Part shown: positions 17,063 to 40,391 of the stretch, piece by piece
Layout: each line of letters starts with the position of its first letter
Numbering within the stretch: the stretch's first letter is position 1
Assembly: GCA_020860565.1 (NCBI GenBank)
Contig: JAJBUA010000077.1
Span: forward strand, 1-55,509
Reading direction: 5' to 3'
DNA: 55,509 bases
Source of the DNA: Clostridiales bacterium
GTDB taxonomy: Bacteria > Bacillota > Clostridia > Lachnospirales > Lachnospiraceae
The notes under the pieces: generated by a model
Database searches by the model: none
What the model was told of the DNA's origin: nothing
What the model saw: only the letters and a program-made list of their open reading frames with translations
Program-made: the position numbers and the translations under genes

Positions 17063-17206
17063 GTCTCTGCAAGGAAATCCTATCCTCCGAGGATCGCTTG
17101 CGCTCTGGTTTTCACGTAACGGTACTAAGTTCGCAGGAAAAGCATCCTGCTCACTAAGTGCCGACGTGAAAAATGTCCTCTACGGATAGGATTTCCTTGC
17201 AGAGAC
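17063..17206 (-). repeat. Structured interspersed repeat, copy 1 (inverted orientation)
   Basis: This 144-bp element is almost one long hairpin. Its terminal arms (17063-17085 and 17184-17206) are perfectly complementary over 23 bases. Inside are a second stem built from TTTTCACGT and ACGTGAAAA, an apical hairpin, and a conserved GCGCAAGC that can form a GNRA-type loop. The other copies are at 31259-31445 and 40248-40391. The inner core is nearly identical among copies, while the terminal arms differ at six positions from copy 3, all compensated. It fills most of the gap between the asparaginase gene and the M20 gene at 17282. There is no transposase gene nearby and no U tract. Confidence 0.85.
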
Positions 17207-17281
17207 TGGTTTATTGGCATGTATAACTTATTATAGATATTTGAGAAAAGTTGGATATAAAGACAAGGGGAGGATAGCATC

Positions 17282-18421
17282 ATGTTAGAAAGTAAAATTC
17301 TGGAGTACATCGAAAATCATGCGCAGGAAACGCTGGATCTGCTTTACACGATTGCGCAGATCCCGGCGCCGTCCAATCATGAGGAAAAGCGCATGGAGTT
17401 TTGCAGTAAATGGCTGACGGATATGGGCGCAGAGGGTGTTTATACGGATGAGGCGCTTAATGTTGTGTATCCGTATGGCGTGAGAGATGGCGTGCCGATT
17501 GTCGTATTTATGGCACACATGGATGTGGTATTTCCGGATACGACGCCGCTTCCGCTTAGCGAAGAGGACGGACGGATCTGTTGTCCGGGCATCGGTGACG
17601 ATACAGCCAATCTGGCGGCGTTGATGATGGTAGCAAAATATGTGACGCAGCAGGAGCTTATCCCGAAGGACTGCGGGATTTTATTTGTCTGCAATACCGG
17701 AGAAGAGGGCATGGGCAATCTGAAAGGTTCGCGAAAGATCTGCAAAGATTATGCCGGAAGGATCCGCAAGTTTTACAGCTTTGACGGGACGCTGAACAGT
17801 GTAGTAAACCGTGCGGTCGGCTCTGCGCGCTTCCGGGTGACGGTAAAGACGCCGGGAGGACATTCCTACGGTAAATTCGGTAATGAAAACGCGATTGCCA
17901 ATCTGGCTGCGATCATCAGCCGGATCTACGCAATCCAGGTGCCGAATGGCGGTAAGACCACCTATAATGTCGGAGTGATCGAGGGAGGTACGTCGGTCAA
18001 TACGATCGCGCAGAAGGCTTCGATGCTCTGTGAGTATCGGTCGGATTGTGAGGCGGATATGGCATATATGGAGGAGCGGTTCCGTGAGATCTTTGAAAAA
18101 CAGCGGAGTGATCAGGTCGAAGTGCAGGTGGAGATCGTCGGACTCCGGCCGTGTGAGCATCTGAATGAGGCGCAGCGGGCAGAGCGTGACCGCATGGTGG
18201 CAGAGGCACAGGAACTGCTGACCGGGATTACCGGGAAGGAGACTAGAACCGGCTCCGGTTCAACGGACTGCAATATCCCATTATCAGTGGGTATTCCCAG
18301 CGTGTGTTATGGCTGCTACATCGGAGACGGAGCACATACCCGCGAAGAATATATCGAGAAGGATTCGCTGAAGATGGGGTATCGGGCGGCGTTTGAGAGT
18401 GTGCTGAAATATTTGTTGTAA
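17282..18421 (+). CDS. M20-family metallopeptidase, PepT/CPG2-like
   Basis: This is a binuclear zinc peptidase, probably a di- or tripeptidase or carboxypeptidase. The 379-residue protein has AHMDVVFPD (first His and Asp), the bridging Asp in PGIGDDTANLAAL, the catalytic Glu pair in NTGEEGMGN, SFDGT, the lid motif GGHSYGKFGNENA, and a late GAHTREEYIE with the final His. This motif style matches the PepT/M20 peptidase branch rather than the M20D amidohydrolases upstream. The start at 17282 follows GGGGAGG. It is the last clear member of the hydrolase island. Confidence 0.88.
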   Translation: MLESKILEYIENHAQETLDLLYTIAQIPAPSNHEEKRMEFCSKWLTDMGAEGVYTDEALNVVYPYGVRDGVPIVVFMAHMDVVFPDTTPLPLSEEDGRICCPGIGDDTANLAALMMVAKYVTQQELIPKDCGILFVCNTGEEGMGNLKGSRKICKDYAGRIRKFYSFDGTLNSVVNRAVGSARFRVTVKTPGGHSYGKFGNENAIANLAAIISRIYAIQVPNGGKTTYNVGVIEGGTSVNTIAQKASMLCEYRSDCEADMAYMEERFREIFEKQRSDQVEVQVEIVGLRPCEHLNEAQRAERDRMVAEAQELLTGITGKETRTGSGSTDCNIPLSVGIPSVCYGCYIGDGAHTREEYIEKDSLKMGYRAAFESVLKYLL

Positions 18422-18505
18422 GTAGTTGAGAAATTTTTGAATTCATTGTATTTTTAAAAGGTAGAATCAGATTGGGGAAATGATTGAGAAAGAGGGTGAT
18501 TATAG

Positions 18506-19909
18506 ATGGCAGAAAGCCAGAATATCGAATGGAAAGAATCCTGGCGTGACGAATATTTGAAATGGATATGTGGCTTTGCTAATGCGCAGGGAGGCAGGAT
18601 TTATATTGGAACGAAAGATGACGGAACCGTTGTTGGAGTCAGAGATAGTAAGAAACTATTAGAGGAGATTCCGAATAAGATACAGACTACGATGGGGATT
18701 GTTGCGGATGTGAATCTCCTTACACAGGACGGTAGGGATTATATTGAGATTGTAGTTTCTCCAAGTTCCTATCCTGTCAATTATAAGGGAGAGTTTCATT
18801 ATCGCAGTGGGAGTACAAAACAACAATTAAAGGGAATTGCTTTAAATGAATTTCTGTCATCAAAATCTGGCATTCGATGGGAAGATGTGATAGTTCCTGG
18901 TGTTACAGCAGATGATCTGGATAAAGAAAGCTTTGATATTTTTCGACGGGAAGCACTCCGCAGCAAAAGAATGACAAAAGAAGATCTGCGGATGACAAAT
19001 GAGGAGCTTTTGGATAGTCTCAAACTTATGACAGAGTGGGGATTGAAACGTGCAGCGGTTATGCTATTTCATCGAAATCCAGAAAAATGGATTCCGGGAT
19101 GCTATACGAAGATTGGAAAGTTTGGTACTGGTTCCGATTTGCAATATCAGGATGAGGTACACGGTTCTCTTTTTATACAGGCAGATCGTATTGTTGATCT
19201 GATTTATCTGAAGTACCTGAAAGCACCAATTACTTACGATAACATGACCAGAGTCGAAACATATCCGTTTGCCAAAGCTGCTGTGAGGGAAGCTGTTTAT
19301 AATGCATTGATTCATTCATGCTGGTCCAGTGGGGTTCCGATTCAGATTCGCATTGAAGATGATGCGATGTATATCAGTAATGATTGCGTATTTCCGTCTG
19401 ACTGGACAGTGGAATCTTTGATGAAGAGGCATCGTTCCAGACCATATAATCCATGCATAGCAAACGCATTTTTTCGGGCGGGATATGTGGAGGTATGGGG
19501 ACGTGGCATTCAGAAAATATGTGAGACTTGTGAAGCATATGGAACAGAACCGCCGGAGTACGATATTCATTCAGAGGACATCATGCTGAAATTACCGGCA
19601 TTACGGAATGCGGTACAGCCCACCCAAACTACCCAAAGTCCCATCCAGTCTACCCAAAGTCCTACCCAAACTTCAGATGGCACACGGGACGATCAATCCC
19701 TTATGATAATTGGAGAATTTACGGATACAGAACAACAAATCCTTCAGTTAATAAAGGAACATCCGGAGTATTCACAACGAGACATGGCGCTTTCGCTAGG
19801 ATGGGAACTCAATCGAGTAAAATATTACTTGACGAAGTTTAGAAAAGCACAGTTGATAAAACATATTGGAACCAATCGGTTGGGATATTGGGAGATTCTG
19901 AGAAAATAA
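18506..19909 (+). CDS. AlbA_2/Schlafen-domain DNA-binding protein with RecG-like C-terminal domain
   Basis: The 467-residue product has an N-terminal AlbA_2 (Schlafen-type) domain, seen as IEWKESWRDEYLKWICGFAN and GGRIYIGTKDDG, to about residue 135. A GHKL-like domain of the RecG-related family follows (AVREAVYNALIHS, SNDCVFP, VWGRGIQKICE) to about residue 370. Next is a low-complexity linker of TQS/TQT repeats at about 374-395, then a C-terminal winged helix (SQRDMALSLGWELNRVKYYL). Such proteins are widespread, often annotated as regulators and sometimes found with mobile or defence genes; the role is not established. The DNA is visibly more A+T-rich than its neighbours, which suggests recent acquisition. 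Confidence 0.78.
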   Translation: MAESQNIEWKESWRDEYLKWICGFANAQGGRIYIGTKDDGTVVGVRDSKKLLEEIPNKIQTTMGIVADVNLLTQDGRDYIEIVVSPSSYPVNYKGEFHYRSGSTKQQLKGIALNEFLSSKSGIRWEDVIVPGVTADDLDKESFDIFRREALRSKRMTKEDLRMTNEELLDSLKLMTEWGLKRAAVMLFHRNPEKWIPGCYTKIGKFGTGSDLQYQDEVHGSLFIQADRIVDLIYLKYLKAPITYDNMTRVETYPFAKAAVREAVYNALIHSCWSSGVPIQIRIEDDAMYISNDCVFPSDWTVESLMKRHRSRPYNPCIANAFFRAGYVEVWGRGIQKICETCEAYGTEPPEYDIHSEDIMLKLPALRNAVQPTQTTQSPIQSTQSPTQTSDGTRDDQSLMIIGEFTDTEQQILQLIKEHPEYSQRDMALSLGWELNRVKYYLTKFRKAQLIKHIGTNRLGYWEILRK

Positions 19910-19915
19910 ATCTTT

Positions 19916-19964
19916 TAAGATGAATGAAAACTTTCGTTAACAGTACGAGTTTTCATTCATCTTA
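19916..19964. terminator. Bidirectional intrinsic terminator
   Basis: A perfect 16-bp stem (19916-19931 with 19949-19964) encloses a 17-base loop in the gap between the convergent AlbA_2 and flippase genes. It has A/T-rich sequence on both sides. Confidence 0.85.
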
Positions 19965-19970
19965 TAATAT

Positions 19971-21641
19971 TCACATCAGCCGCATTTTCCGCGCCAGCGC
20001 CAGCACTCTCGTCCCAAACGGCATGTCCGGCAGCTCCTCTGCTGTGACGGCGCGGAAGACAAGGATCAGTACCGCATAGATCACCATGGCGATCGGGACT
20101 GTGATGATCAGGCTGATCAGATTGACGGATAACGCCATATGGATCACCGTATAGATGCCACGGGCGGCGAGGCCCATGATAAGGGCGGCGCCGAGAGGCA
20201 GGAGGAAGGTTGTCCGGATCTCCTGCCGGTAGTGCTGTGCTTTGCCGATCGCGTGCCAGTTGAGGACGCAGACGACCAGAGCGAAGGTGACGTTGCCGAT
20301 CACCAGCCCATAGACGCCCAGATTCAGCCGGTCCAGCATGATATATACGAGAAAGATGTGGATCACCAGTGAGATCGCCGAGTGGGTCACGGATTTGCGC
20401 ATCAGGTCGATGCCCTGCAGCACAGAATTGGTAACGGTCGAGAGGGAGAAAAAGACCACGGCGGGAGCGCCGATCTCCATCAGTCTGGCGGTCAGCGGGC
20501 GGCTGTCACGGAAGATCAGCTGCATGATCGGACCCGCGAGGACGCCGAGGCCGACGGCGCAGGGAATCGCGATCAGCATATTAAACTTGATCGTCAGGCG
20601 GATCTTATCGTTGACTTCATCATTGAGCTTCTGCGCGCGTGAATGGACGATGCTGGGGATCATGGAGGTGCCCAGCGAGGAGGCGATTGCTACCGGCACA
20701 TTAGAGAGGAGGCGGTATTTGCCGCCGTAGATGCCGAGCAGGGACAGCCTTTCCTTTTCATTGAGCCCTTTGCTGCCCATGATGAGACCGAACATGGAGT
20801 TGTCTGTCGATCCGCTGAGCTGATAGACAAACTGGCTGAGGATAATCGGGGTCAGAGTCAGGAGCAGAGCTTTATAGATCTGAGCTGTGGTTTCCGGAGT
20901 ATCCAGCTGCCTGCGATGCAGGCGGCTTTTATTTTTCTTAAAATACAGCGAGATCAGGAGCGAGAGAAAGATCAGGGATGCCAGCGCGCCGGAGAGCGTG
21001 CCGAGCGTACCGCCGGCCGCGCCGTAGGACGCCGGGTTTTCTCTGGAGGCAAACCAGATCATAAAGGTATAGGATGCCGTGATACTGACGATCGCATTGA
21101 CGACCTGCTCGATGATCTGGGAGACCGAGGTGGGGACCATATTGCCGTGCCCCTGGAAGTATCCGCGGATCACACCCATGACGGAGAATACAAAAATGGT
21201 CGGCGACATGACTTTCAGCGGCAGCGCGCTGCTCGGACTGTTAAAAATATGCGTGGTGATCCAGTCCGCGCCAAGGAGCAGGAGCAGCGTCATTGCGCCT
21301 CCGGCGACCATGCCGAAGAGCAATCCGCTCAGAAAGACATGGCGGACGTCTTCATAACGGTCATGGACGCGTCGGGCTGCGATCAGCTTGGAAATCGCCA
21401 GCGGAAGACTGTAGGAAGAGAGGATCAGTCCGATATTGTAGATCTCGTAAGCAGTATTGTAATAACCGATGCCGTCGTCACCGAGGACAGTGGTCATCGG
21501 GATTTTATAGAGAAGACCGATAAAGCGGACGATGATTCCCGCCATCGCGAGGATGCTGCCCTGCACCAGAAATCCACCGGAATTATTCTCTTTTTTATTA
21601 TGGCGCTTCTGCCGGTCAGCCTTTTTTGCAATCGTTTTCAT
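19971..21641 (-). CDS. Polysaccharide/lipid II flippase-like membrane protein (SpoVB/MurJ, MOP superfamily)
   Basis: Proteins of this group flip lipid-linked cell-wall or polysaccharide precursors across the membrane. The 556-residue product begins with a basic, Lys-rich cytoplasmic tail (about 1-22) and then has about 14 membrane helices. Typical early motifs are SGGFLVQGSILAMAGIIVR and YKIPMTTVLGDDGIGYY, as in SpoVB-like proteins. The length is normal for SpoVB. It is convergent with the AlbA_2 gene and divergent from recJ. Whether it acts in sporulation cortex synthesis or in vegetative wall or polysaccharide export cannot be decided from sequence. Confidence 0.86.
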   Translation of the reverse strand: MKTIAKKADRQKRHNKKENNSGGFLVQGSILAMAGIIVRFIGLLYKIPMTTVLGDDGIGYYNTAYEIYNIGLILSSYSLPLAISKLIAARRVHDRYEDVRHVFLSGLLFGMVAGGAMTLLLLLGADWITTHIFNSPSSALPLKVMSPTIFVFSVMGVIRGYFQGHGNMVPTSVSQIIEQVVNAIVSITASYTFMIWFASRENPASYGAAGGTLGTLSGALASLIFLSLLISLYFKKNKSRLHRRQLDTPETTAQIYKALLLTLTPIILSQFVYQLSGSTDNSMFGLIMGSKGLNEKERLSLLGIYGGKYRLLSNVPVAIASSLGTSMIPSIVHSRAQKLNDEVNDKIRLTIKFNMLIAIPCAVGLGVLAGPIMQLIFRDSRPLTARLMEIGAPAVVFFSLSTVTNSVLQGIDLMRKSVTHSAISLVIHIFLVYIMLDRLNLGVYGLVIGNVTFALVVCVLNWHAIGKAQHYRQEIRTTFLLPLGAALIMGLAARGIYTVIHMALSVNLISLIITVPIAMVIYAVLILVFRAVTAEELPDMPFGTRVLALARKMRLM

Positions 21642-21769
21642 AAATAAGATTCTCCTGAATAATTATACCGTTTGATTATAGCACAATTAAGGGAAATGTG
21701 GTACAATGTTTATGTTTGACTGCCTGTGACTCAGTGATGGATATACGGGGAGCAGCGCAGGATTTATGA

Positions 21770-23533
21770 ATGAGGGCGGAGATTACTGTGAGGAGAAAAA
21801 AGGAAGAGCCGAGATGGATGCTCTACACAAAGAAGGCAGATTTTCAGGAGATTTCGTCACGGTTTGGCATCAGTCCGGTGACGGCACGGATCCTGCACAA
21901 CCGGGATGTGATCGGCGACCGGGAGATGGAGCGCTATCTTTACGGCACAGTGAAGGATCTGCATTCTCCGCATAAGCTAAAGGATATTGATTATGCTGCG
22001 GGGCTGATCCGTCAGAAGATCGGTCAGGGCAGGAAGATCCGTATTGTGGGTGATTATGATATTGACGGAGTGTGCGCGACCTATCTGCTGATCCGGGGGC
22101 TGCGCCGGTGCGGAGCCAATGTGGACCATCAGATCCCGGAGAGGATCCGGGACGGGTATGGGATCAATGAATCGATTATCCGCAAGGCAGCCGCGGATGG
22201 AGTGGATACGATTATCACCTGTGATAACGGCATATCTGCGTATGATCAGCTGCAGCTGGCACGGGAACTGGGACTCACGGTGATTGTGACCGATCATCAT
22301 GAGGTACCGCGGGACGCGGAGGGCAGGGAAAAACTCCCGCCGGCGGCCGCCGTAGTCAATCCGCATCAGGAGTCCTGCGGTTATCCTTATAAGGATATCT
22401 GCGGCGCTGTCGTCGCCTATAAGCTGATTCAGGTGTTATATGAGAATTTTGGCATCCGGGAGGCGGAATGGGCCGCGATGCTGGAGTTCGCGGCGATCGC
22501 GACGGTGGGAGATGTGATGCCGTTGAAAGATGAAAACCGTATCCTGGTCAAACATGGGTTAAAGCAGATGCCCAACACGCGCAGTATGGGCCTGCGCTGT
22601 CTGGTAGAAGCGTGCAATCTCGACATCTATCATCTGACTGCCTATCATATCGGTTTTGTGATCGGACCCTGCCTCAATGCCAGCGGACGGCTGCAGACAG
22701 CAGAACTGGCACTGGAACTTCTGCTGTGTGAAGAGGAGGAACCGGCCAGAGAGATGGCTGCCCGACTGCAGCAGCTCAATGAAGAACGCAAGCAGATGAC
22801 GCAGGCCGGTGTGGATCAGGCGCTGACACAGGTGGAAGAACGCTATGCGGAGGACAAGGTGCTGGTAATCTATCTGCCCGAATGTCACGAATCGATTGCA
22901 GGGATTATTGCCGGACGGGTGCGTGAGGCGTGGAACCGCCCGTCGATGGTGCTGACCAGAGGGGAAGGCTGCGTCAAGGGATCCGGGCGTTCGATCCGGG
23001 CATACTCCATGTACCAGAAGCTGTGTGAGGTGCAGGATCTGCTGCTCAAATTCGGCGGGCATCCGATGGCGGCCGGGTTTTCGTTAGAGGAAAAAGATAT
23101 TGACGAGTTCCGCCGCCGGTTAAACGAACAGTCCGGATTGACGCCGAAGGACTTTATCCCGGAGATATGGATTGATGTTGCGATGCCGTTGGGATATATC
23201 TCAGAAAGTCTGGTGCAGGAACTGAGCCTTTTGGAACCCTTTGGACAGGGAAATGAGAAACCGCAGTTTGCGCAGAGACGCCTGCGGATCCGTGGGGTCA
23301 GGGTACTCGGAAAACTGCGCAACGCGGTCCGCCTGTCGCTGGTGACAGAGAGCGGATTTGTGATGGAGGGGAGACTCTTTACGGAGGGCGACCGATTCTT
23401 AGAGGAACTGGGCAATAAAAAAATCATAGATATTATTTACTATCCGGAAATAAACGAATATAATGGAAACCGCAGTCTGCAGGTGGTAGTAAAAGAATAC
23501 CGTCTGCATGGCGGAGAACAGGAGGGAACATGA
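21770..23533 (+). CDS. recJ: Single-stranded-DNA-specific 5'-3' exonuclease RecJ
   Basis: RecJ degrades single-stranded DNA 5' to 3' in recombination and repair. The 587-residue product has the DHH phosphoesterase motifs GDYDIDG (about 94-100), TCDNGIS and VTDHHEVP (about 172-179). The DHHA1 domain contains AGIIAGRV, KGSGRS and GGHPMAAG at about residues 375-440, and a C-terminal OB-like domain follows. The start is uncertain: ATG at 21770, GTG at 21788 behind GGCGGAG, or ATG at 21818 just before the conserved LYTKKADF. Its stop overlaps the next gene by four bases. Confidence 0.93.
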   Translation: MRAEITVRRKKEEPRWMLYTKKADFQEISSRFGISPVTARILHNRDVIGDREMERYLYGTVKDLHSPHKLKDIDYAAGLIRQKIGQGRKIRIVGDYDIDGVCATYLLIRGLRRCGANVDHQIPERIRDGYGINESIIRKAAADGVDTIITCDNGISAYDQLQLARELGLTVIVTDHHEVPRDAEGREKLPPAAAVVNPHQESCGYPYKDICGAVVAYKLIQVLYENFGIREAEWAAMLEFAAIATVGDVMPLKDENRILVKHGLKQMPNTRSMGLRCLVEACNLDIYHLTAYHIGFVIGPCLNASGRLQTAELALELLLCEEEEPAREMAARLQQLNEERKQMTQAGVDQALTQVEERYAEDKVLVIYLPECHESIAGIIAGRVREAWNRPSMVLTRGEGCVKGSGRSIRAYSMYQKLCEVQDLLLKFGGHPMAAGFSLEEKDIDEFRRRLNEQSGLTPKDFIPEIWIDVAMPLGYISESLVQELSLLEPFGQGNEKPQFAQRRLRIRGVRVLGKLRNAVRLSLVTESGFVMEGRLFTEGDRFLEELGNKKIIDIIYYPEINEYNGNRSLQVVVKEYRLHGGEQEGT

Positions 23534-24675
23534 CCGATCATCTTCGAACAGTCGTTATTGGCTACGGAGGCATGGGGAGCCAGTACGCTCAGATGCTTTA
23601 TGACGGGAAAGTCGAGGGAATGACGCTGACCGGCGTCTGCTGCCGCAATGAGCCGGGCCAGCAGAAGATCCGTGAGCGGCACCCCGGAGTTGCGATTTAC
23701 CGGGATACGGAGGATACCTTCGCACACGCGTCTGATTTTGACGCGGTTGTGGTAGTGACGCCGCACGTGACGCATGTGCCGATCACAGCGGAGGCACTGG
23801 CACTGGGCAAGCATGTCCTCTGCGACAAGCCGGCCGGGATCTGCGCAGGCGAAGTCAGAGAGGTTCTGGCAAAGAAGCCGCAGGGGGCGGTCTGGGCGAT
23901 CATGTTTAATACCCGTATGGAACCCGCGTCTTTAAAGGCAAAGGAACTTCTGGACGCGGGAGAGCTGGGAGAGATCACGCGGGCAGTCTGGGTCTGCAAC
24001 AGTTGGTTCCGCACGCCGGCTTATCACCGGAGTTCTCCGTGGAGGAGCAGCTGGTCGGGAGAATACGGCGGTCTGTTAATTAATCAGTGTCAGCATTATC
24101 TGGACCTCTGGCAGTGGCTGCTGGGGATGCCGGACGAGGTGGACGCGGATATTGATTTTGGCAAGTATAATGATTTCACGGTGGACGACAGCGTGGATCT
24201 GCGTTTTCTCTATGGACCGGGTTCCGTACATCCGAAGCTGCGCGGCACCTTTATCAGCGCGACCGGCGAGTATCCCGGAGACAATCGTTTTGAGATCTGG
24301 GGCAAAAAGGGAAGGCTTACGCTGCTGGATGAGAAGAAGCTGATCCTTGACCGCAGTGAGCCGGATGTGGATACCTTCTGCCATACTAATACGGAGATTT
24401 ACGGGCAGCCGGAATATCACACGGAGGTACTGGTGGAGCCGCAGCCGGGCAAACAGTATCAGAAGGTATTTCAGAATTTCAGCGACCACATCCGTAAGGG
24501 GACGCCTCTTCTGGCGGATGCGGCAAACGGCGTCAACAGCCTGACTCTGGCCAACGCGGCGTATCTGTCCGCGTGGACGGGGATACGGATCGCGCTGCCG
24601 ATGGATGATGCACTTTATACAAGGCTCCTGCAAGACCGGGCGGCCATGGAATTAAAGGAAAAGAACAAAAAGTGA
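23530..24675 (+). CDS. Gfo/Idh/MocA-family NAD(P)-dependent oxidoreductase
   Basis: These enzymes oxidise or reduce sugars, inositols and related polyols with NAD(P). The 381-residue protein has an N-terminal Rossmann fold (VVIGYGGMGSQYAQML), the signature VLCDKPAGICAGE with the catalytic-site Lys near residue 99, and a C-terminal domain with GGLLINQCQHYLDL containing the usual His. The gene overlaps recJ by four bases and precedes glyA by 15, so it is in an operon with unrelated housekeeping genes. The substrate is unknown. Confidence 0.88.
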   Translation: MTDHLRTVVIGYGGMGSQYAQMLYDGKVEGMTLTGVCCRNEPGQQKIRERHPGVAIYRDTEDTFAHASDFDAVVVVTPHVTHVPITAEALALGKHVLCDKPAGICAGEVREVLAKKPQGAVWAIMFNTRMEPASLKAKELLDAGELGEITRAVWVCNSWFRTPAYHRSSPWRSSWSGEYGGLLINQCQHYLDLWQWLLGMPDEVDADIDFGKYNDFTVDDSVDLRFLYGPGSVHPKLRGTFISATGEYPGDNRFEIWGKKGRLTLLDEKKLILDRSEPDVDTFCHTNTEIYGQPEYHTEVLVEPQPGKQYQKVFQNFSDHIRKGTPLLADAANGVNSLTLANAAYLSAWTGIRIALPMDDALYTRLLQDRAAMELKEKNKK

Positions 24676-24690
24676 TGAGAGAGGAGAATC

Positions 24691-31258: not shown

Positions 31259-31445
31259 GTCCCTGAGAGGAACACATATCCGCAGAGAACATTTTTCACG
31301 TCGGCACTTAGTGAGCAGGACGCTTTTCCTGCGAACTTATACCTTAGTATCCATATGACGTGCCAGTGACACGTCATATGGAGTACCGTTACGTGAAAAC
31401 CAGAGCGCAAGCGGTCCTCGGAGGATATGTGTTCCTCTCAGGGAC
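31259..31445 (+). repeat. Structured interspersed repeat, copy 2 (with nested hairpin insertion)
   Basis: It has the same family core as the elements at 17063-17206 and 40248-40391. Terminal arms 31259-31281 and 31423-31445 are perfectly complementary over 23 bases. Compared with the other copies, about 43 extra bases lie after the apical hairpin. They form their own perfect 13-bp hairpin (31350-31362 with 31370-31382, loop CCAGTGA). A 16-bp tandem duplication (31443-31458 and 31459-31474) adjoins the 3' edge. Together with the spoVG terminator this accounts for most of the 517-base gap between spoVG and pth. Confidence 0.85.
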
Positions 31446-31612
31446 GGATGGTGCGTCAGACGGATGGTGCATCAATAAACACTCCTTTACATTTTCCGAT
31501 AATTCTGCTAAAATCTGACCAGACATCAGAAGAGTTGCAGTTTTGGCACATGCCGAAGCTGTAACATTTTTGCGTGTCCATTTCCGTTTTATTTATGAAT
31601 GAGGGAGAAATT

Positions 31613-32218: not shown

Positions 32219-35200
32219 GCGGGATATTTGCCAATCCTTTAACAGAATTAATTGAATATGAAGAACTCAGCCGCGATCTGAAGCAGCAAAAAGGACCGCT
32301 TCAGTTGTCCGGCTGCATGGAGTCTCAGAAGGTTCACCTGATGAGCGAGACGGCGACGGATACGCCATGGAAGCTGGTAGTGACTGCGGATGAGAGTCAT
32401 GCAAAGGAGATCTGCGAGGATTTTCGCTGCTTCCGTCCGGATGTCTGGCTGTATCCGGCAAAGGATCTGCTCTTTTACAGTGCGGATATCCATGGAAGCC
32501 TGATATCGCGGGAGCGGCTGGTGGCGCTCCGCCATCGCATGGAGGATGAGACCGGGGTCTTCGTAACAACCATTGACGGCCTGATGGACCGTCTTTTTCC
32601 GATGGAGCGATTCTATGAGGAAGTGCTTCATGCAAAAGCCGGCATGGAGCTGGATCTGGATGTCTGGAAAGAGAGTCTCGCCAGAATGGGTTACGAACGC
32701 CTCCCGCAGGTGGACGGGATGGGGCAGTTTTCCGTCCGCGGCGATATTCTGGATATCTTTCCCATGACACAGGAACAGCCGGTACGAATTGAATTATGGG
32801 ACAATGAGATCGATTCGATCCGGCTTTTCGACCCGGAGAGCCAGCGCTCGATCGAGCAGCTGGAGCAGGTGGATATCTACCCGGCAGCCGAGTTTGCGCC
32901 CGATTGGGAAGAGGAGGGCATGAGCGCGGAAAGGCTGGAGCGGGAAACCGTGTCGCTGCTGGATTATTTTGCGCCCGGAATCAGTATGATATTTCTGGAT
33001 GAACCGGTGCGCCTGAGGGAACGGGGCGAAGCCGTAGAGGAAGAATTTGCGGAGAGCATGAAGAACCGGCAGGAAGAGGGGTATGCCCTGTCTGCGCAGA
33101 TGCGGCTGCTGATTCCGGCAAAGGAGATCCTGACGCGCTGCGCGAGGCCGGATACCCTCTGCCTGACGGGACTGGATCAGAACATCCCGGAGATCGGGAT
33201 TACAAAGAGATACAGTATTCAGGGCAAAAGCGTCAGTTCTTATCAGAACAGTTTTGAACTGCTGATCGGTGATCTGACCCGCTGGAAGAAAAATAACTAC
33301 CGCGTGGTACTTCTGTCCGGTTCGCACACCAGAGCCAGCCGTCTGGCAAATGATCTGAGAGAGTATGGTCTGTCGGCATTTTGCCCGGACGAGGGGGAAA
33401 CGCAAGTGCGGCCGGGCCAGATCCTGGTGACCTATGGCAATCTGCACCGCGGATTTGAGTACCCGCAGATCCGCTTTGTGGTGATTACCGAGACGGATAT
33501 GTTCGGCGGGCGCAGGAAAAAGAACCGGCGCAGAAAGAAGAAGCGCAGCGGCAGCCAGATCCAGGGCTTTACCGAACTGTCGATCGGCGATTATGTGATT
33601 CATGAAGATCACGGCCTGGGCATTTACCGCGGGATAGAAAAGATCGAGCGTGACCATGCCCTGCGGGATTATCTCAAGATCGAGTACGCGGACGGAGGAT
33701 ATCTTTACCTGCCGGCGACCAAATTAGAAGTGATCCAGAAATATTCGAGTTCGGAGACGGATAAGAAGCTGACACTTGACCCGCTTGGCAGCGCACAATG
33801 GAAAAAGACCAAGAAAAAGGTAAAAAGCGCCGTTCAGGAGATCGCGAAAGATCTGGTCGAGCTTTATGCCGCGAGACAGCAGACGGACGGGTTTCCGTAT
33901 GGTCCGGACACGGTATGGCAGACGGAATTTGAAGAATTATTTCCTTTTGAAGAGACCGAGGATCAGCTGGCGGCCATTGAGGACACCAAGCGGGATATGG
34001 AGAGCACGAAGATCATGGATCGCCTGATCTGCGGCGACGTCGGCTACGGGAAGACGGAGATCGCTCTGCGCGCTGCTTTTAAGGCAGTTCAGGAGAGCAA
34101 ACAGGTCGTGTATCTGGTGCCGACGACGATCCTCGCGCAGCAGCATTATAATACGTTTGTGCAGCGGATGAAGGATTTTCCGGTGCGCGTGGCACTGATG
34201 TCCCGTTTCCGCAGCAGTGCGGAGATCCGCAGGACGGTGGAGGATCTGCAGAAGGGTCTGGTCGACATCGTGATCGGGACTCACCGCGTGTTGTCAAAGG
34301 ACGTAAAATTTAAGGATCTGGGACTACTGATTATCGATGAAGAGCAGCGTTTCGGCGTGACCCATAAAGAAAAAATCAAGAAATTAAAGGAAAATGTGGA
34401 TGTCCTGACGCTGACAGCGACGCCGATTCCCAGAACGCTCCATATGAGTCTGGTGGGAATCCGTGATATGAGTGTTCTGGAGGAGCCGCCGGTGGATCGC
34501 GTGCCGATCCAGACTTACGTGATGGAATATCATGATGAGATGGTCCGGGAGGCAATTGACCGGGAACTGGCCCGCGGCGGACAGGTGTATTTTGTCTATA
34601 ATCATGTAAAAGATATCGCGGAAATGGCGTCGCGCGTGCAGGCGCTCATACCGGAGGCGACAGTTGTTTACGCACATGGGCAGATGCGGGAACACGATCT
34701 GGAAGAGATCATGCTGGATTTTGTCAACGGGGAGATTGACGTACTGGTATCAACGACGATCATCGAGACCGGTCTGGATATCCCCAATGTCAACACGATC
34801 ATTATCCATGACGCAGACCGGATGGGGCTCTCACAGCTCTACCAGCTGCGTGGCCGGGTGGGGCGTTCGAGCCGGACTGCTTATGCGTTCCTGATGTACC
34901 GCAAGGATAAGATTCTTAAGGAAGAGGCGGAGAAGCGCCTGCGCGCAATCCGTGAGTTTACGGAACTTGGCTCCGGGATCCGGATTGCGATGCGCGATCT
35001 GGAGATCCGCGGCGCGGGAAATGTACTGGGAGCAGAACAGAGCGGACACATGGAAGCGGTCGGCTATGATCTCTACTGCAAGATGTTAAATCAGGCGGTG
35101 CAGGAATTAAAAGGAACCCGCAAAAAGGAAGAGGATTTCCAGACGGAGGTCAACTGCGATATCGACGCCTATCTGCCGGGACATTATATTAAAAATGAAT

Positions 35201-35598
35201 ATCAGAAGCTGGATGTCTATAAGCGGATCGCTTCGATTGAGAATCAGGAGGAGGTCCTGGATATGGAAGATGAGCTGATCGACCGTTTCGGCGAGATTCC
35301 GCGTCCGGCAGGCAATCTGCTGACTGTCGCGGCGATCCGTGCCGCGGCGCATCATGCCTGGGTCACTGAGGTGAGGATTAACCGTCAGGAGTTCCGGCTG
35401 ATGATGCATCCGCATGCCAGTCTGGACGTAACCGGGATCCCGGCACTGATGGAAAGCTTCGGCAGAAATATGAGATACGCTGCGGGAGAAACTCCGTATT
35501 TCCAGTATGTCGACAAAAAGACAAAATACCGGGACTGCACAGAAATGATGTCAGTGGCTCAGAAGTTTTTGGCAGAATTGGGCAAGCTTGCGATATGA
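32215..35598 (+). CDS. mfd: Transcription-repair coupling factor Mfd
   Basis: Mfd is an ATP-driven translocase that removes RNA polymerase stalled at DNA damage and recruits UvrA. The 1127-residue protein has all expected parts. The UvrB-like N-terminal region includes FSVRGDILDIFPM near residue 168. The RNA-polymerase-interacting domain is near residues 455-520 (SIGDYVIHEDHGLGIYRG). The helicase core has Walker A GDVGYGKTE, the DEEQ box in IIDEEQRFGV, TATPIPRT and the C-terminal GRVGRSSR, and a regulatory D7 domain ends the protein. A very basic linker (KKNRRRKKKRS) precedes the polymerase-binding domain. Length and order are normal. Confidence 0.97.
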   Translation: MSGIFANPLTELIEYEELSRDLKQQKGPLQLSGCMESQKVHLMSETATDTPWKLVVTADESHAKEICEDFRCFRPDVWLYPAKDLLFYSADIHGSLISRERLVALRHRMEDETGVFVTTIDGLMDRLFPMERFYEEVLHAKAGMELDLDVWKESLARMGYERLPQVDGMGQFSVRGDILDIFPMTQEQPVRIELWDNEIDSIRLFDPESQRSIEQLEQVDIYPAAEFAPDWEEEGMSAERLERETVSLLDYFAPGISMIFLDEPVRLRERGEAVEEEFAESMKNRQEEGYALSAQMRLLIPAKEILTRCARPDTLCLTGLDQNIPEIGITKRYSIQGKSVSSYQNSFELLIGDLTRWKKNNYRVVLLSGSHTRASRLANDLREYGLSAFCPDEGETQVRPGQILVTYGNLHRGFEYPQIRFVVITETDMFGGRRKKNRRRKKKRSGSQIQGFTELSIGDYVIHEDHGLGIYRGIEKIERDHALRDYLKIEYADGGYLYLPATKLEVIQKYSSSETDKKLTLDPLGSAQWKKTKKKVKSAVQEIAKDLVELYAARQQTDGFPYGPDTVWQTEFEELFPFEETEDQLAAIEDTKRDMESTKIMDRLICGDVGYGKTEIALRAAFKAVQESKQVVYLVPTTILAQQHYNTFVQRMKDFPVRVALMSRFRSSAEIRRTVEDLQKGLVDIVIGTHRVLSKDVKFKDLGLLIIDEEQRFGVTHKEKIKKLKENVDVLTLTATPIPRTLHMSLVGIRDMSVLEEPPVDRVPIQTYVMEYHDEMVREAIDRELARGGQVYFVYNHVKDIAEMASRVQALIPEATVVYAHGQMREHDLEEIMLDFVNGEIDVLVSTTIIETGLDIPNVNTIIIHDADRMGLSQLYQLRGRVGRSSRTAYAFLMYRKDKILKEEAEKRLRAIREFTELGSGIRIAMRDLEIRGAGNVLGAEQSGHMEAVGYDLYCKMLNQAVQELKGTRKKEEDFQTEVNCDIDAYLPGHYIKNEYQKLDVYKRIASIENQEEVLDMEDELIDRFGEIPRPAGNLLTVAAIRAAAHHAWVTEVRINRQEFRLMMHPHASLDVTGIPALMESFGRNMRYAAGETPYFQYVDKKTKYRDCTEMMSVAQKFLAELGKLAI

Positions 35599-35690
35599 GG
35601 CGGGGCAGATGAGCCAGATAGTTACAGGTCGCGCGCCGGCTGACCGGCCTGTGGCCTGCAATGTGAGGTACGGTTACAGGTTACACCCAT

Positions 35691-35712
35691 GCCACGCACT
35701 GCGCTGCGTGGC
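35691..35712 (+). terminator. Hairpin downstream of mfd
   Basis: GCCACGCA (35691-35698) pairs with TGCGTGGC (35705-35712) around a 6-base loop. There is no U tract, so it is a weak terminator candidate in the gap between mfd and rfbA. Confidence 0.35.
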
Positions 35713-35777
35713 GTGGGGCCAGATACGTAATGGAACGAGATACGCGGTACGCTTTGTGCTGTGGGGGATTCTGTCCG

Positions 35778-35806
35778 TTGCCAAAAGCGAGGTTCTGTGC
35801 TATAGT
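35778..35806 (+). promoter_or_regulatory. Sigma-A promoter of the dTDP-rhamnose genes
   Basis: TTGCCA (35778-35783) and TATAGT (35801-35806) are separated by exactly 17 bases. The -10 box ends 51 bases before the rfbA start codon. Confidence 0.75.
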
Positions 35807-35857
35807 ACAAGTTAGTAAAAACGGGCTTTTTGCTCATATCATAAAGGAGAACTACCG

Positions 35858-36751
35858 ATGAAAGGAATCATTCTCGCGGGCGGTTCCGGTACCCGCCTCT
35901 ATCCCTTAACCAAGGTCACATCGAAGCAGCTGCTGCCGATTTATGACAAACCCATGATTTATTATCCGTTGTCGGTGCTGATGAACGCGGGCATTCGCGA
36001 TATCCTGATTATCTCGACTCCGGATGATACGCCGCGTTTTGAAGCGCTGCTTGGTGACGGAGCCCAGTTCGGGATCCATCTGGAGTACCGGGTGCAGCCG
36101 AGCCCGGACGGACTGGCGCAGGCATTTATTATCGGAGCTGAATTTATCGGAGAGGATTCCGTCGCGATGGTTCTGGGAGATAATATTTTCCATGGCCACG
36201 GGCTGAGAAAACGTCTGCGCGCCGCGGCCGCCAAGGAGCAGGGCGCAACCGTATTCGGCTATTATGTAGACGACCCGGAACGGTTTGGCATCGTGGAGTT
36301 TGACGCGGAGGGCAAGGCGATATCCATCGAGGAAAAACCGGCCAGACCGAAGTCCAATTACTGCGTAACCGGCCTGTATTTCTATGATAACCGTGTTGTA
36401 GAGTATGCCAGGAACTTAAAGCCGTCCGCCCGCGGCGAACTGGAGATTACCGATCTGAACCGCATCTATCTGGAAAATGGCGAGCTTGAGGTAGCTCTTC
36501 TGGGACAGGGCTTTACCTGGCTGGATACGGGGACGCATGAATCTCTGGTAGACGCGACCAACTTTGTCAAGACCGTCGAGACTCATCAGCACAGAAAGAT
36601 CGCCTGCCTGGAAGAGATCGCGTACCTGAATGGCTGGATCACCAGAGAGCAGGTGCTTAAGACTTACGAAGTATTAAAGAAGAATCAGTACGGGCAGTAT
36701 CTGAAGGACGTGCTGGACGGCAAATATATTGACCGTCTGCATAATTTATAG
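35858..36751 (+). CDS. rfbA: Glucose-1-phosphate thymidylyltransferase
   Basis: It makes dTDP-glucose from glucose-1-phosphate and dTTP, the first step of dTDP-L-rhamnose synthesis. The 297-residue product begins with the nucleotide-binding signature [14 protein letters not shown] and has [16 protein letters not shown], the metal-binding VLGDNIFHG near residue 108, and [19 protein letters not shown]. Length and motifs are typical of RmlA. It starts a run with RmlB and RmlD genes behind its own promoter. Confidence 0.96.
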
Positions 36752-36844
36752 GAAGCGGCATAAAGTCGCTTACCATATGACCAGGATTCAGGATGGACGA
36801 TACGCGTCCTGAATAAAATCGCAGTCAGGAAAGGGAAGAAATTT

Positions 36845-37864
36845 ATGACTATCATTGTAACCGGCGGAGCCGGATTTATCGGAAGTAATTTTATCTTTCA
36901 TATGCTGGGAAAATATCCCGATTACCGTATCATCTGTCTGGATAAACTGACCTACGCGGGCAATCTGTCGACGCTTGCCCCCGTGATGGACAATGCGAAT
37001 TTCCGCTTTGTTAAAGCAGATATCTGCGACCGTGATGCCGTGAATCAGCTCTTTGAGGAGGAGCACCCGGATATCGTTGTGAACTTTGCGGCGGAGAGTC
37101 ATGTGGACCGCTCGATCGAAGATCCGGGGATCTTTTTACAGACCAATATTATGGGAACCGCGGTACTGATGGACGCCTGCCGCAAATACGGGATCACACG
37201 TTATCATCAGGTCTCTACGGATGAAGTATACGGCGATCTGCCGCTGGACCGGCCGGATCTGTTCTTTACGGAAGAGACTCCGATCCATACAAGCAGCCCG
37301 TATTCGTCATCGAAGGCATCCGCGGATCTGCTGGTGCTGGCTTATCACCGGACGTACGGACTGCCGGTGACGATCAGCCGCTGCTCCAATAACTACGGGC
37401 CGTATCATTTCCCGGAAAAACTGATCCCGCTGATGATCGCGAACTGTTTAAATGATAAGCCGCTCCCGGTATACGGGGAGGGACTGAATGTCCGCGACTG
37501 GCTGTATGTGGAAGACCACTGCCGCGCAATCGACCTGATCATTCACAAGGGACGCGAGGGAGAGGTTTACAATGTCGGCGGACATAATGAGATGAGAAAT
37601 ATCGACATCGTAAAACTGATCTGCAAGGCTTTAAACAAACCGGAATCACTGATTACGTATGTGACAGACCGCAAGGGGCATGATATGCGCTACGCGATCG
37701 ATCCGGCGAAGATTCACCGGGAACTGGGCTGGCTGCCGGAGACAAAGTTCGCGGACGGCATTCAGAAGACGATCCAGTGGTATCTGGATAACCGTGAGTG
37801 GTGGGAGACGATCATTTCCGGTGAGTATCAGAATTATTATGAGAAAATGTATGCCAATCGGTAA
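36845..37864 (+). CDS. rfbB: dTDP-glucose 4,6-dehydratase
   Basis: It converts dTDP-glucose to dTDP-4-keto-6-deoxyglucose. The 339-residue extended short-chain dehydrogenase has the NAD motif TGGAGFIGSNF at the N-terminus. It also has FAAESHVDRSI, STDEVYGDL with the catalytic Thr, Asp and Glu, and the YxxxK pair in SPYSSSKASADLL, followed by RCSNNYGPYHFPEKLIP. It lies 93 bases after rfbA; the gap holds no other gene. Confidence 0.96.
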   Translation: MTIIVTGGAGFIGSNFIFHMLGKYPDYRIICLDKLTYAGNLSTLAPVMDNANFRFVKADICDRDAVNQLFEEEHPDIVVNFAAESHVDRSIEDPGIFLQTNIMGTAVLMDACRKYGITRYHQVSTDEVYGDLPLDRPDLFFTEETPIHTSSPYSSSKASADLLVLAYHRTYGLPVTISRCSNNYGPYHFPEKLIPLMIANCLNDKPLPVYGEGLNVRDWLYVEDHCRAIDLIIHKGREGEVYNVGGHNEMRNIDIVKLICKALNKPESLITYVTDRKGHDMRYAIDPAKIHRELGWLPETKFADGIQKTIQWYLDNREWWETIISGEYQNYYEKMYANR

Positions 37865-37948
37865 GAAAGGGAAATCGTGAGAAAGCAGGCAGATCTTTCA
37901 GCACGATTGGTGCCGTCAACCAGAGGGCGGCGGAATGGAGATTAGAAA

Positions 37949-38797
37949 ATGAAGGTACTTGTAACCGGTGCCAAAGGACAGCTTGGCACGGATCTGATGA
38001 ATGAGCTGGCAAAACGCGGGATAGAGGGCGTCGGTGTGGACATTGACGAGATGGATATCACGGACGCGGAAGCGTGCAAAAAGGTAATTTCCGGGGCGAA
38101 TGTTGACGCAGTGATTCACTGCGCCGCATATACTGCAGTAGATGCGGCGGAGGATAACGAGGAACTCTGCCGCCGGATTAACGCGGAGGGTACCCGCAAT
38201 GTAGCGGCAGCCTGCCGCGAGGCCGGCGTTAAGATGATGTATATCAGCACAGACTATGTGTTCAACGGACAGGGGACCCGTCCATGGGAGCCGGATGACC
38301 ACAGAGAGCCGCTGAATGTCTACGGACAGACCAAGTATGAAGGCGAGCTTGCCGTGGAAGAACTGCTTGACGGACGGTATTTTATCGTGCGTATCGCCTG
38401 GGTATTTGGTGTGGCCGGCAAAAACTTTATCAAGACGATGCTGCGTCTGGGCAAAGACCATAAGAATCTGACAGTCGTAGCTGATCAGATCGGTTCACCG
38501 ACTTATACTTATGATCTGTCGCGCCTGCTGGTGGATATGATCCAGACAGAGCGCTACGGGCGTTATCACGCGACCAACGAGGGACTTTGCAGCTGGTATG
38601 AATTTGCCTGCGAGATCTTCCGTCAGGCCGGCATGAACGATGTGAAGGTCGCGCCTGTAACAAGTGCCGAGTATCCGGCAAAGGCAACCAGACCTTTTAA
38701 CAGCCGTATGAGCAAGGATAAATTATCCGAAAACGGCTTTGAGCGTCTGCCGTCCTGGCAGGACGCGCTCGCAAGATTTTTAAAAGAAGTTCAGTAA
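37949..38797 (+). CDS. rfbD: dTDP-4-dehydrorhamnose reductase
   Basis: It performs the final NAD(P)H-dependent step of dTDP-L-rhamnose synthesis. The 282-residue product begins with the Rossmann motif VTGAKGQLGTDL, and has INAEGTRNVAAAC, STDYVFNGQG and the catalytic YGQTKYEGE. The preceding step needs a 3,5-epimerase (RmlC), and no such gene lies between rfbA and glmM. It is 84 bases after rfbB and 14 before glmM, so all are probably cotranscribed. Confidence 0.94.
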   Translation: MKVLVTGAKGQLGTDLMNELAKRGIEGVGVDIDEMDITDAEACKKVISGANVDAVIHCAAYTAVDAAEDNEELCRRINAEGTRNVAAACREAGVKMMYISTDYVFNGQGTRPWEPDDHREPLNVYGQTKYEGELAVEELLDGRYFIVRIAWVFGVAGKNFIKTMLRLGKDHKNLTVVADQIGSPTYTYDLSRLLVDMIQTERYGRYHATNEGLCSWYEFACEIFRQAGMNDVKVAPVTSAEYPAKATRPFNSRMSKDKLSENGFERLPSWQDALARFLKEVQ

Positions 38798-38811
38798 AAC
38801 GAGGTTGAAAT

Positions 38812-40182
38812 ATGGGAAAATATTTCGGAACGGATGGGTTTCGCGGAGAAGCGAACGTTACGCTGACCGTAGAACACGCGTATCAGGTGGGGCGTTTCCT
38901 GGGCCATTATTACGCGCAGAAAAACTGCGGCTCATGCAGAGAGCCGGGAGGACACTGCCGCGTGGTGATCGGCAAGGACGCGCGCCGCTCCAGTTATATG
39001 TTTGAATATTCGCTGGTGGCAGGTCTGACAGCGTCCGGTGCGGACGTATACCTGCTCCATGTAACCACGACGCCCAGCGTATCGTATGTGGTGCGCACGG
39101 AGGGCTTTGACTGCGGCATTATGATTTCGGCGAGCCATAATCCTTATTATGACAATGGCCTGAAAGTCATCAACAGCAGAGGAGAAAAACTGGAAGAAGA
39201 AGTGATCGTACAGATCGAAGACTATCTGGACGGGAAGATCGGGGAATTTCCTTATGCTCTGAGAGGAGATATCGGACGAACCACCGATTATTCCGCCGGA
39301 CGCAACCGCTACATCGGTTATCTGATCGCAACCGCCACACGATCCTTTAAAGGAAAAAAGGTCGCGCTGGACTGCGCGAACGGCAGCGCCTCCGCGATTG
39401 CCAAAAGCGTATTTGACGCGCTGGGTGCGCGCACACTCGTGATTCATAATGAGCCGGACGGCCTGAATATCAACGCAGGCTGCGGTTCGACCCACATCGA
39501 AGAACTGCAGCGTTTTGTAAAGGAAAATGGCTGCGACGTCGGATTCGCTTACGACGGAGACGCAGACCGCTGCATCGCGGTAGATGAAAACGGAAACGAG
39601 GTCAACGGCGACCGGATCCTCTATATCTGCGGAAAATATATGAAAGAGACCGGCGCACTGCATCACAATACGGTAGTCACCACCGTAATGTCCAATCTGG
39701 GACTGTATAAGGCCTTTGAACGCGAGGGCATCTGTTACGAGAAGACAGCCGTAGGCGATAAATACGTCTATGAAAACATGTGCCAGTATGGGCATTGCCT
39801 CGGCGGAGAACAGTCCGGACACATCATATTCAGCAAACACGCGACGACCGGCGACGGTATCCTGACCTCCCTCAAAGTCATGGAAGTCATGCTTGAGAAA
39901 AAACAGCCCTTAAGCCGGCTCGCCTCTGAGGTAGAGATCTTCCCACAGGTGCTGATCAATGTCCCGGTAGCCGATAAACAGGCGGCAATCGACGATCCGG
40001 CCGTTCAGGCAGAAGCAGAGAAAGTCAGCACAGAACTGGGCGAGGACGGACGCCTCCTGCTGCGCCAGTCCGGCACAGAGCCATTGGTACGCGTCATGGT
40101 AGAAGCCGCGACAAAAGAACAGTGCGAGCACTACGCCAACTGCGTGGTGGAAGTGCTGAAAGCGCAGGGGCATGTGATCTGA
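38812..40182 (+). CDS. glmM: Phosphoglucosamine mutase
   Basis: GlmM interconverts glucosamine-6-phosphate and glucosamine-1-phosphate on the way to UDP-GlcNAc and peptidoglycan. The 456-residue protein begins MGKYFGTDGFRG, has the active phosphoserine loop ISASHNPYYDNG near residue 105, the metal-binding DGDADRC near residue 245, and the phosphate-binding RQSGTEPLVRVM near the C-terminus. An unusual Cys-containing insert (KNCGSCREPGGHC, about residues 38-50) lies in the first domain, where other GlmM proteins have a shorter loop. Phosphomannomutase is the alternative, but the start and serine loop favour GlmM. Confidence 0.9.
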   Translation: MGKYFGTDGFRGEANVTLTVEHAYQVGRFLGHYYAQKNCGSCREPGGHCRVVIGKDARRSSYMFEYSLVAGLTASGADVYLLHVTTTPSVSYVVRTEGFDCGIMISASHNPYYDNGLKVINSRGEKLEEEVIVQIEDYLDGKIGEFPYALRGDIGRTTDYSAGRNRYIGYLIATATRSFKGKKVALDCANGSASAIAKSVFDALGARTLVIHNEPDGLNINAGCGSTHIEELQRFVKENGCDVGFAYDGDADRCIAVDENGNEVNGDRILYICGKYMKETGALHHNTVVTTVMSNLGLYKAFEREGICYEKTAVGDKYVYENMCQYGHCLGGEQSGHIIFSKHATTGDGILTSLKVMEVMLEKKQPLSRLASEVEIFPQVLINVPVADKQAAIDDPAVQAEAEKVSTELGEDGRLLLRQSGTEPLVRVMVEAATKEQCEHYANCVVEVLKAQGHVI

Positions 40183-40247
40183 GTTAAAAAGAGGTACAAA
40201 GACGTATGAAATAAATGGTAGAGTTTAAAGACTTTGCCAATCAAGTA

Positions 40248-40391
40248 GTCCCTGAGAGGGAAACATATCCGCAGAGGACATTTTTCACGTCGGCACTTAA
40301 CGAACCGGATGCTTTTCCGGTGAGTTTAGTACCGTTACGTGAAAACCTAAGCGCAAGCGGTCCTCGGAGGATATGTTTCCCTCTCAGGGAC
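40248..40391 (+). repeat. Structured interspersed repeat, copy 3 (next to leuA)
   Basis: This is a 144-bp element with perfectly complementary 23-bp ends (40248-40270 with 40369-40391), an inner GAGGAC/GTCCTC helix, a TTTTCACGT/ACGTGAAAA helix, and an apical ACCGGA/TCCGGT hairpin. It shares its core with copies at 17063 and 31259 but has a different apical hairpin sequence, again self-complementary. It ends 29 bases before the leuA start codon, so it must lie in any leader transcribed from upstream. Confidence 0.85.

What the first reader, a model, noticed from the sequence alone, without database searches (positions are those of the whole stretch)
17063..40391. Three-copy structured repeat whose terminal arms covary
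Elements at 17063-17206 (minus), 31259-31445 (plus) and 40248-40391 (plus) share a nearly constant core, with TTTTCACGT..ACGTGAAAA helix strands and a GCGCAAGC motif. Their 23-bp terminal arms are perfectly complementary within each copy. Copies 1 and 3 differ at six arm positions and copies 2 and 3 at two, and every change is matched on the opposite arm. Ordinary transposon ends are conserved by sequence, not by pairing. This pattern points to selection on a folded RNA or single-stranded DNA, or to arm-templated copying. All copies lie between genes, and I know of no named family with this core.
Basis: partly seen in the sequence, partly recalled or inferred. Interest (0 to 1): 0.85.

Follow-up and report, generated by a model that had tools for sequence, protein, structure and literature searches.

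The report
Mobile RNA hairpin repeat with self-matching arms
The bacterium of this window and many of its relatives carry scattered copies of a small DNA element that folds into one elaborate RNA-like hairpin, and its long outer arms change sequence freely from copy to copy while staying almost perfectly matched to each other, which makes it a natural test case for how hairpins keep their pairing as they evolve.

Summary
The three window copies belong to a family with at least 51 copies in this genome. It occurs in 61 of 150 sampled genomes of the same family but only 3 of 199 sampled across the phylum, one of them borderline. No Rfam 15 family reaches its threshold.

The + strand folds as arms P1, a bulged helix P2 and a mini-hairpin P3. 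The P3 loop is GNRA in 196 of 201 hairpins and GNYA in none, which points to RNA. Arms are mostly 23 bp here, up to 54 bp elsewhere. In two genomes 1893 of 1955 arm cells are Watson-Crick and 22 are G-U. In 12 orthologous copy pairs, 30 arm sites changed on both sides (15 transversions) and 7 on one.

Best reading: a non-autonomous, BOX/MITE-like dispersed element whose transcript folds, with arms kept matched by template switching plus selection on the fold. Neither transcription nor a mobilising enzyme was shown. In one relative it lies inside a terminal-repeat unit. A Y1-transposase (REP) origin and a fixed gene-regulatory role are not supported. New variant of a known kind.

The parts
17063..17206 (-). 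Copy 1: arm (17184-17206), P2/P3 core, arm (17063-17085)
   Evidence: E 2.8e-35
31259..31445 (+). Copy 2: arms 31259-31281 and 31423-31445, core with extra hairpin module
   Evidence: E 8.5e-26
31340..31382 (+). Extra ~43-nt hairpin module inserted in the 3' side of P2 of copy 2; also in other G000 copies (boundaries approximate)
40248..40391 (+). Copy 3: whole hairpin element
   Evidence: E 5.4e-38
40248..40270 (+). P1 5' arm of copy 3
40369..40391 (+). P1 3' arm of copy 3, perfect complement of the 5' arm
40274..40279 (+). P1b 5' strand GAGGAC, pairs with 40360-40365
40282..40345 (+). P2: TTTTCACGT..ACGTGAAAA helix with conserved bulges and a variable tip
40351..40358 (+). P3: GC-GCAA-GC mini-hairpin with GNRA loop
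40236..40247 (+). Conserved 5' flank motif (here GCCAATCAAGTA) just outside the arm
40392..40396 (+). Conserved 3' flank motif (here GGACG) just outside the arm

Best explanation
It is a short, non-autonomous dispersed element (about 145-190 bp here) whose + strand, when transcribed, folds into one defined RNA: P1 arms of free sequence, a short P1b, a long P2 with conserved bulges, and a GNRA-capped P3. SHOWN: the family, its copy number, the conserved structure, the GNRA rule and the matched arm changes. INFERRED: copies spread as DNA with the help of some enzyme acting in trans. Because the arms form a long hairpin in replicating DNA, the polymerase can copy one arm from the other (template switching), so a mutation in one arm is written into the other, transversions included. 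Selection on the folded RNA keeps the core and removes broken copies. The folded RNA probably acts for the element (protein binding, or shielding or processing of transcripts that cross it), not for a particular neighbouring gene.
For: Covariation beyond shuffles and slides. Arm cells in 85 distinct arm pairs of two genomes: 1893 Watson-Crick, 22 G-U, 40 mismatched. Twelve orthologous copy pairs between G000 and G019: 30 both-sided changes (15 transversions) against 7 one-sided in 275 sites. In the G023 family 34 matched change cells against 11 others. P3 loop GNRA 196 of 201, GNYA 0; outside the G000/G019 subfamily 102 of 106, GNYA 0. Across 41 loci (one per accession prefix or genome handle) an invariant or nearly invariant CGG/CACUUA/UUAGUACCG core and covarying helices. 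The same kind of fold with different arms in genomes with 1-3 copies. High copy number in some genomes and no match in 10 of 23 others of the same genus. G023 unit with terminal inverted repeats. Published precedent: template switching can create and maintain RNA hairpins (PMC8794818: abstract, start of the introduction and one results section read) and homogenises inverted-repeat arms (PMC8604942: passages read).
Against: No transcript is shown. Adjacent double changes are not significantly clustered (7 observed, 4.7 expected, p 0.14), which copying of multi-base tracts might have produced. G-U is just as rare in the lower P2 helix (0.7-2.6%) as in the arms, and only 3-7% in tips, so strong selection for Watson-Crick pairs alone is possible. 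Of the two G023 element types, type a shows only transitions (3 types). One orthologous copy (L234) has an unmatched 1-nt deletion in an arm. Copying of whole elements between genome copies could also move both arms at once. No clean pre-insertion site or target duplication was demonstrated. No mobilising gene was identified.
Confidence: 0.58

Rival explanations
1. Selection on a folded RNA alone: the arms are complementary because unpaired copies lose function; no template copying is needed.
For: GNRA rule; conserved bulged core with covariation across genera; lower P2 and tips also have few G-U; no significant clustering of double changes.
Against: Half of the matched in-place changes are transversions and only 7 of 275 sites are one-sided; G-U is 1.2-1.3% of arm pairs in G000 and G019 against 2.9-4.5% in tips. 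No consistent gene context or orientation.
Confidence: 0.24
2. A REP/REPIN-like single-stranded DNA element moved by a Y1 HUH (RAYT/TnpA-IS200-like) transposase.
For: GTAG at the 5' foot of many copies; pairs within 700 bp are nearly always head to head, as in REPINs: 7 of 7, 17 of 18 in G023, 12 of 13; the sets overlap in part.
Against: Y1_Tnp does not track copy number: G000 has one fragment and G019 only broken pieces with about 50 or more elements each; G004, G005, G013, G018, G025 and G034 have elements and no match. No strand bias against local GC skew in G395 (14 of 30). GNRA-only loops are an RNA signature (recalled rule).
Confidence: 0.06
3. An ordinary DDE-type MITE: the hairpin is passive filler between terminal repeats.
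For: 13 of 20 G023 units are 455-464 bp with TACCTTGTCGTGC-type repeats at both ends; outer inverted repeats of score 10 or more in 26 of 120 elements of other loci against 1.8% in the control.
Against: The interior, not the ends, is what is conserved across the family; no outer repeat of that score in G000 (1 of 43) or G019 (0 of 43); passive filler would not keep a GNRA loop and bulges.
Confidence: 0.08
4. A cis-acting mRNA element (leader or 3' end) that regulates specific genes.
For: Copy 3 lies before leuA (Pfam HMGL-like and LeuA_dimer) and a copy in G030, another genus, lies before a homologue. Co-directional contexts in G000 and G019 lean to sense (20:11 and 22:8, many shared by descent).
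Against: Among 25 copies in 15 low-copy genomes few neighbours within 1.5 kb are shared in the 15 largest clusters shown; in G395 co-directional contexts are 11 sense and 11 antisense.
Confidence: 0.04

Closest known systems
BOX elements of Streptococcus pneumoniae (PMC3049150: abstract and one results section read)
   Same: Short interspersed repeats, 125 in one genome, predicted to fold as RNA, with an internal module (boxB) that may be absent or repeated, as the 43-nt hairpin here is optional; mostly past proliferation.
   Different: Different hosts; no boxA/B/C sequence was compared; BOX has TIRs and TSDs, the window's subfamily shows no TIR; nothing seen there about arms that vary freely yet match.
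NEMIS/Correia elements of Neisseria (PMC2649163: start of abstract in the listing)
   Same: Short repeat with inverted repeat and conserved core that can bind RNase III.
   Different: Their inverted repeats are conserved by sequence (recalled); here the arms are not.
REP/REPIN elements with RAYT transposases (recalled; PMC6006769 seen in listing only)
   Same: Dispersed hairpins, inverted pairs, GTAG at the foot.
   Different: Several times longer, GNRA mini-hairpin, no co-occurring Y1 transposase, no strand bias.
Template-switch maintained RNA hairpins (PMC8794818)
   Same: Arms kept complementary by copying of one arm from the other.
   Different: Described there for RNA genes by ancestral reconstruction; here a dispersed multi-copy element with long arms.

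Membership tests
Rfam 15 families | Score at or above a family's gathering threshold | tested here: not met
   0 matches for the window; with E-value limits only sub-threshold hits: HgcF 9.2 bits, and on 8 loci microRNA models and sbcD (23.5 bits against 40, minus strand over the L133 element)
BOX element | RNA-like stem-loop in multiple interspersed copies | tested here: met
BOX element | boxA-boxB-boxC modules | not tested
   no BOX sequence was compared
BOX element | Terminal inverted repeats | tested here: not met
   outer inverted repeat (score 10 or more) in 1 of 43 G000 and 0 of 43 G019 copies
BOX element | Target-site duplication | tested here: inconclusive
   no clean empty site found
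MITE | Short, multi-copy, no coding capacity | tested here: met
MITE | Terminal inverted repeats | tested here: inconclusive
   clear in 13 of 20 G023 units and in 26 of 120 elements of other loci; absent in the window's genome
MITE | Target-site duplication at a clean insertion | tested here: inconclusive
   no clean empty site; the 13 full G023 units are flanked by A on the left and T on the right, compatible with TA
MITE | Mobilised by an identifiable transposase | tested here: inconclusive
   no transposase among representatives of 7 recurrent ORF clusters near copies; no longer unit seen among the G023 terminal-repeat sites
REP/RAYT | Y1 transposase present in genomes with many copies | tested here: not met
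REP/RAYT | Inverted pairs | tested here: met
Retron or group II-type RNA | Reverse transcriptase with the RNA | tested here: not met
   no RVT_1 match at E <= 0.001 in G004, G020, G031 and G034, which have 3, 2, 11 and 20 elements

The most novel reading that the evidence does not exclude
The element is a bacterial counterpart of a SINE: its folded RNA, recognised through the GNRA hairpin and bulged P2, is the form that is copied or carried by a trans-acting protein, and snap-back synthesis on the P1 hairpin rewrites both arms together at each round, so that free arm sequence with perfect pairing is a by-product of its replication cycle.
Probability: 0.1. Interest if true: 0.88.

Novelty: new variant of a known kind. 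Interest (0 to 1): 0.62.

Why it matters
Compensatory change is the standard proof of RNA structure, yet how two mutations get fixed together is disputed. Here dozens of copies per genome, about two thousand arm base pairs in two genomes and orthologous copies in sister species give a natural experiment on whether arm pairing is kept by selection or by copying in DNA. It also adds an apparently unnamed, RNA-like repeat to a large bacterial family: it was found in 61 of 150 genomes sampled nearly one per genus.

Tried and rejected
Conserved partner gene: ORFs of 115 loci (812 kb) clustered; nine representatives of 7 recurrent clusters were scanned and are histidine kinases, an ABC transporter, an AAA-ATPase/PDDEXK protein, a GGDEF protein, an AraC-type regulator, an NlpC/P60 protein and a penicillin-binding protein; four others were only read by eye, one of them non-coding repeat DNA. 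Not every cluster was identified. Y1 transposase and reverse transcriptase as mobilisers: no co-occurrence. Autonomous long form: looked for between close pairs (L128 holds a panC-like gene, named by eye) and by terminal repeat in G023; none seen. Phage or plasmid carriage: no match in IMG/VR for the core pattern, nor in the phage and plasmid collections. Strand preference against GC skew: none (30 of 37 copies of one genome). Papers: searches listed nothing that names this repeat; only openly licensed papers were searched and only titles and abstract starts were seen.

Rows dropped or weak., 73 used 30 of 37 copies (see observation check). Of 51 G000 copies, 23 could be placed in the held part of G019: 15 present and 8 flagged empty; 28 could not be placed. 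The first G019 fetch was centred on its own copies, so presence is over-represented. Of the 15, 12 entered the count; L008, one of the two L016 elements and L234 (a 1-nt deletion shifts one arm) did not; L029 was re-paired by hand with its correct partner. One search, which keeps L234 and also L011 (placed by one flank only) and skips L029, gives 33 both-sided and 19 one-sided of 299 sites in 13 pairs; 12 of the 19 come from the L234 shift. In one search, 10 of 211 elements gave no P3, and the finder required a stem starting AG. The 'other' group held 11 elements of the G000/G019 subfamily under other names; one search repeats the counts without them (one search was not repeated). Flank divergences are inflated by indels. 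Zero matches come from a narrow model with strict filters (G036 had 0 there and 1).
Full report
What is there. The three elements are at the stated coordinates and each has 23 of 23 Watson-Crick arm pairs. The whole element folds far better than shuffles (z -12). The window is one contig of a 2.8-Mb draft genome, G000. A search with copy 3 found several dozen more copies. Removing duplicates left 51 distinct copies in the G000 sequence held.

Breadth. A model from 41 loci, R2, matched 61 of 150 genomes of the family, drawn nearly one per genus. Across the phylum it matched only 3 of 199: G000 itself, one of the same family and one borderline hit at E 8.7e-5. No match in IMG/VR, the phage collection or the plasmid collection. 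No Rfam family reaches its threshold in the window (weaker limits gave only sub-threshold hits).

Anatomy. From outside in: a conserved 5' flank RCCAAYAAAGTA or RCCAAYACACA and a 3' flank GGACC or GTCC; P1 arms; an internal loop; P1b; P2, with ACGY-CGG-C-ACU-U-A opposite U-AGU-A-CCG-CU-RCGU, whose core is invariant or nearly so in 41 loci that were found by a pattern containing part of it; a variable tip; and P3, a two-pair hairpin with a four-base loop. Arms are 23 bp in 79 of 96 G000 and G019 copies and 14-54 pairs, median 26, in 111 elements elsewhere. Some copies, window copy 2 among them, carry an extra 43-nt hairpin in P2. In low-copy genomes found with R2 rather than the pattern, the fold is kept with different arms, and the C.A mismatch of P2 can become a pair (CGGUUCUUA with UUAGAACCG).

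RNA or DNA. The P3 loop is GNRA in 196 of 201 hairpins, with all eight GNRA variants seen, and GNYA in none; 102 of 106 and none outside the G000/G019 subfamily. GNRA with a purine at the third place is an RNA rule (recalled). This is the best sign that the + strand acts as RNA. No transcript was seen, and orientation to genes is not fixed: 11 sense and 11 antisense among co-directional contexts in G395. Copies between convergent genes outnumber those between divergent genes: 9 to 3 in G000, 15 to 5 in G019, 8 to 0 in G395, as if insertions near promoters are lost. In G000 and G019 co-directional contexts lean to sense (20:11 and 22:8), but many of these copies are shared by descent.

Arms. 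Among 30 copies, 18 of 23 arm pairs have matched changes; shuffles and slid structures fall far short. Among 85 distinct arm pairs from G000 and G019, 1893 of 1955 cells are Watson-Crick, 22 G-U and 40 mismatched. Alternative Watson-Crick types seen are 20 of 23 possible transitions and 32 of 46 possible transversions. G-U makes 1.2-1.3% of arm pairs and 2.9-4.5% of tip pairs in these genomes, and 2.8% and 7.2% elsewhere. The lower P2 helix is as poor in G-U (0.7-2.6%), so rarity of G-U alone does not single out the arms.

In-place change. Orthologous copies in G000 and G019 give the cleanest test. In 12 pairs, 275 sites, 30 changed on both sides and 7 on one; of the 30, half are transversions, which cannot pass through G-U. 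With the rows kept that I dropped, the figures are 33 and 19 of 299, 12 of the 19 due to a single-base deletion that shifts one arm. In the G023 family there are 34 matched change cells (10 types, 4 transversional) against 11 others (8 types); its type a has transitions only. This fits template switching between arms, a known process (PMC8794818; PMC8604942). Against it, adjacent double changes are not clustered beyond chance (p 0.14), and copying of whole elements between genome copies could also transfer both arms at once.

Mobility. By eye, copies of one genome share a lineage-specific P2 helix, and copy number jumps between relatives, so the element seems to disperse; no tree was built. 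In G023 the hairpins come as a head-to-head pair of two types, 52-60 bp apart in 15 of 17 pairs, and 13 of 20 units found are 455-464 bp with terminal repeats like TACCTTGTCGTGCAG..CTGCACGACAAGGTA. Pairs within 700 bp are head to head in 7 of 7, 17 of 18 (G023; the exception is the junction of two abutting units in L329) and 12 of 13 (L081 is the exception) cases; the sets overlap in part. At 700-1500 bp one search has two head-to-head and two same-strand pairs. Outer inverted repeats occur in 26 of 120 elements of other loci but in 1 of 43 G000 and 0 of 43 G019 copies. Of 51 G000 copies, 23 could be placed in the held part of G019: 15 present and 8 flagged empty. Six of the 8 keep arm, core or flank remnants, so they look like deletions rather than pre-insertion sites; L009 and L007:273 are unclear. 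One copy is inverted as a whole with its flanks between the two genomes (L006 and L208). No enzyme was identified: none among the recurrent genes scanned, no co-occurrence of Y1 transposase or reverse transcriptase, no strand bias, no longer unit with the G023 ends.

Verdict. A real, widespread, apparently unnamed dispersed RNA-like hairpin element; in kind it stands with BOX, NEMIS and REP repeats, but its arms, free in sequence and near-perfect in pairing, and its GNRA-bulge core set it apart.

Noticed in passing
L033 (end of G000:C34) and L038 (start of G000:C97): Two copies run, after the same base (..GAAAACCTGA), into the same foreign sequence beginning TATGTAATGACTTTTGT at a contig end: perhaps an insertion sequence that targets this element at one site. 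Only the C97 copy is long enough for the 40-base pattern.
   Followed up: partly
L058/L375 (G030) and window 40248-40391: In G030, of another genus with two copies, one copy also lies just before a leuA homologue, as window copy 3 does; chance or an old shared site.
   Followed up: partly
L209, L195 and L200 (G019): Extra 3' halves of the element (from the GNRA hairpin to the 3' flank) follow whole copies, several in tandem in L209, a pattern suggestive of template switching or slippage across P2; part of L209 reads N.
   Followed up: no
L199 around 3912-4212 and flanks of several G019 copies: A second repeat family, AACTTCCGATAAGTTATATTATGGG.., often abuts the hairpin elements.
   Followed up: no
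G023 terminal-repeat sites: Many terminal-repeat matches come in same-strand pairs exactly 72 bp apart.
   Followed up: no
window 42419-42962 and 44362-44833: Tandem 60-bp coding repeats (GW..YY type), like cell-wall or glucan-binding repeats; the type is recalled, not searched.
   Followed up: no
window 46000-47330 and 54090-55470: Long direct duplications at 81-88% identity about 8.1 kb apart.
   Followed up: no
window 45163-45204 and 45719-45760: A 42-nt inverted repeat pair, 81% complementary, 514 nt apart.
   Followed up: no
L128 3908-5139: Two elements flank a panC-like gene within a panB-panC-panD-like run (names by eye).
   Followed up: no
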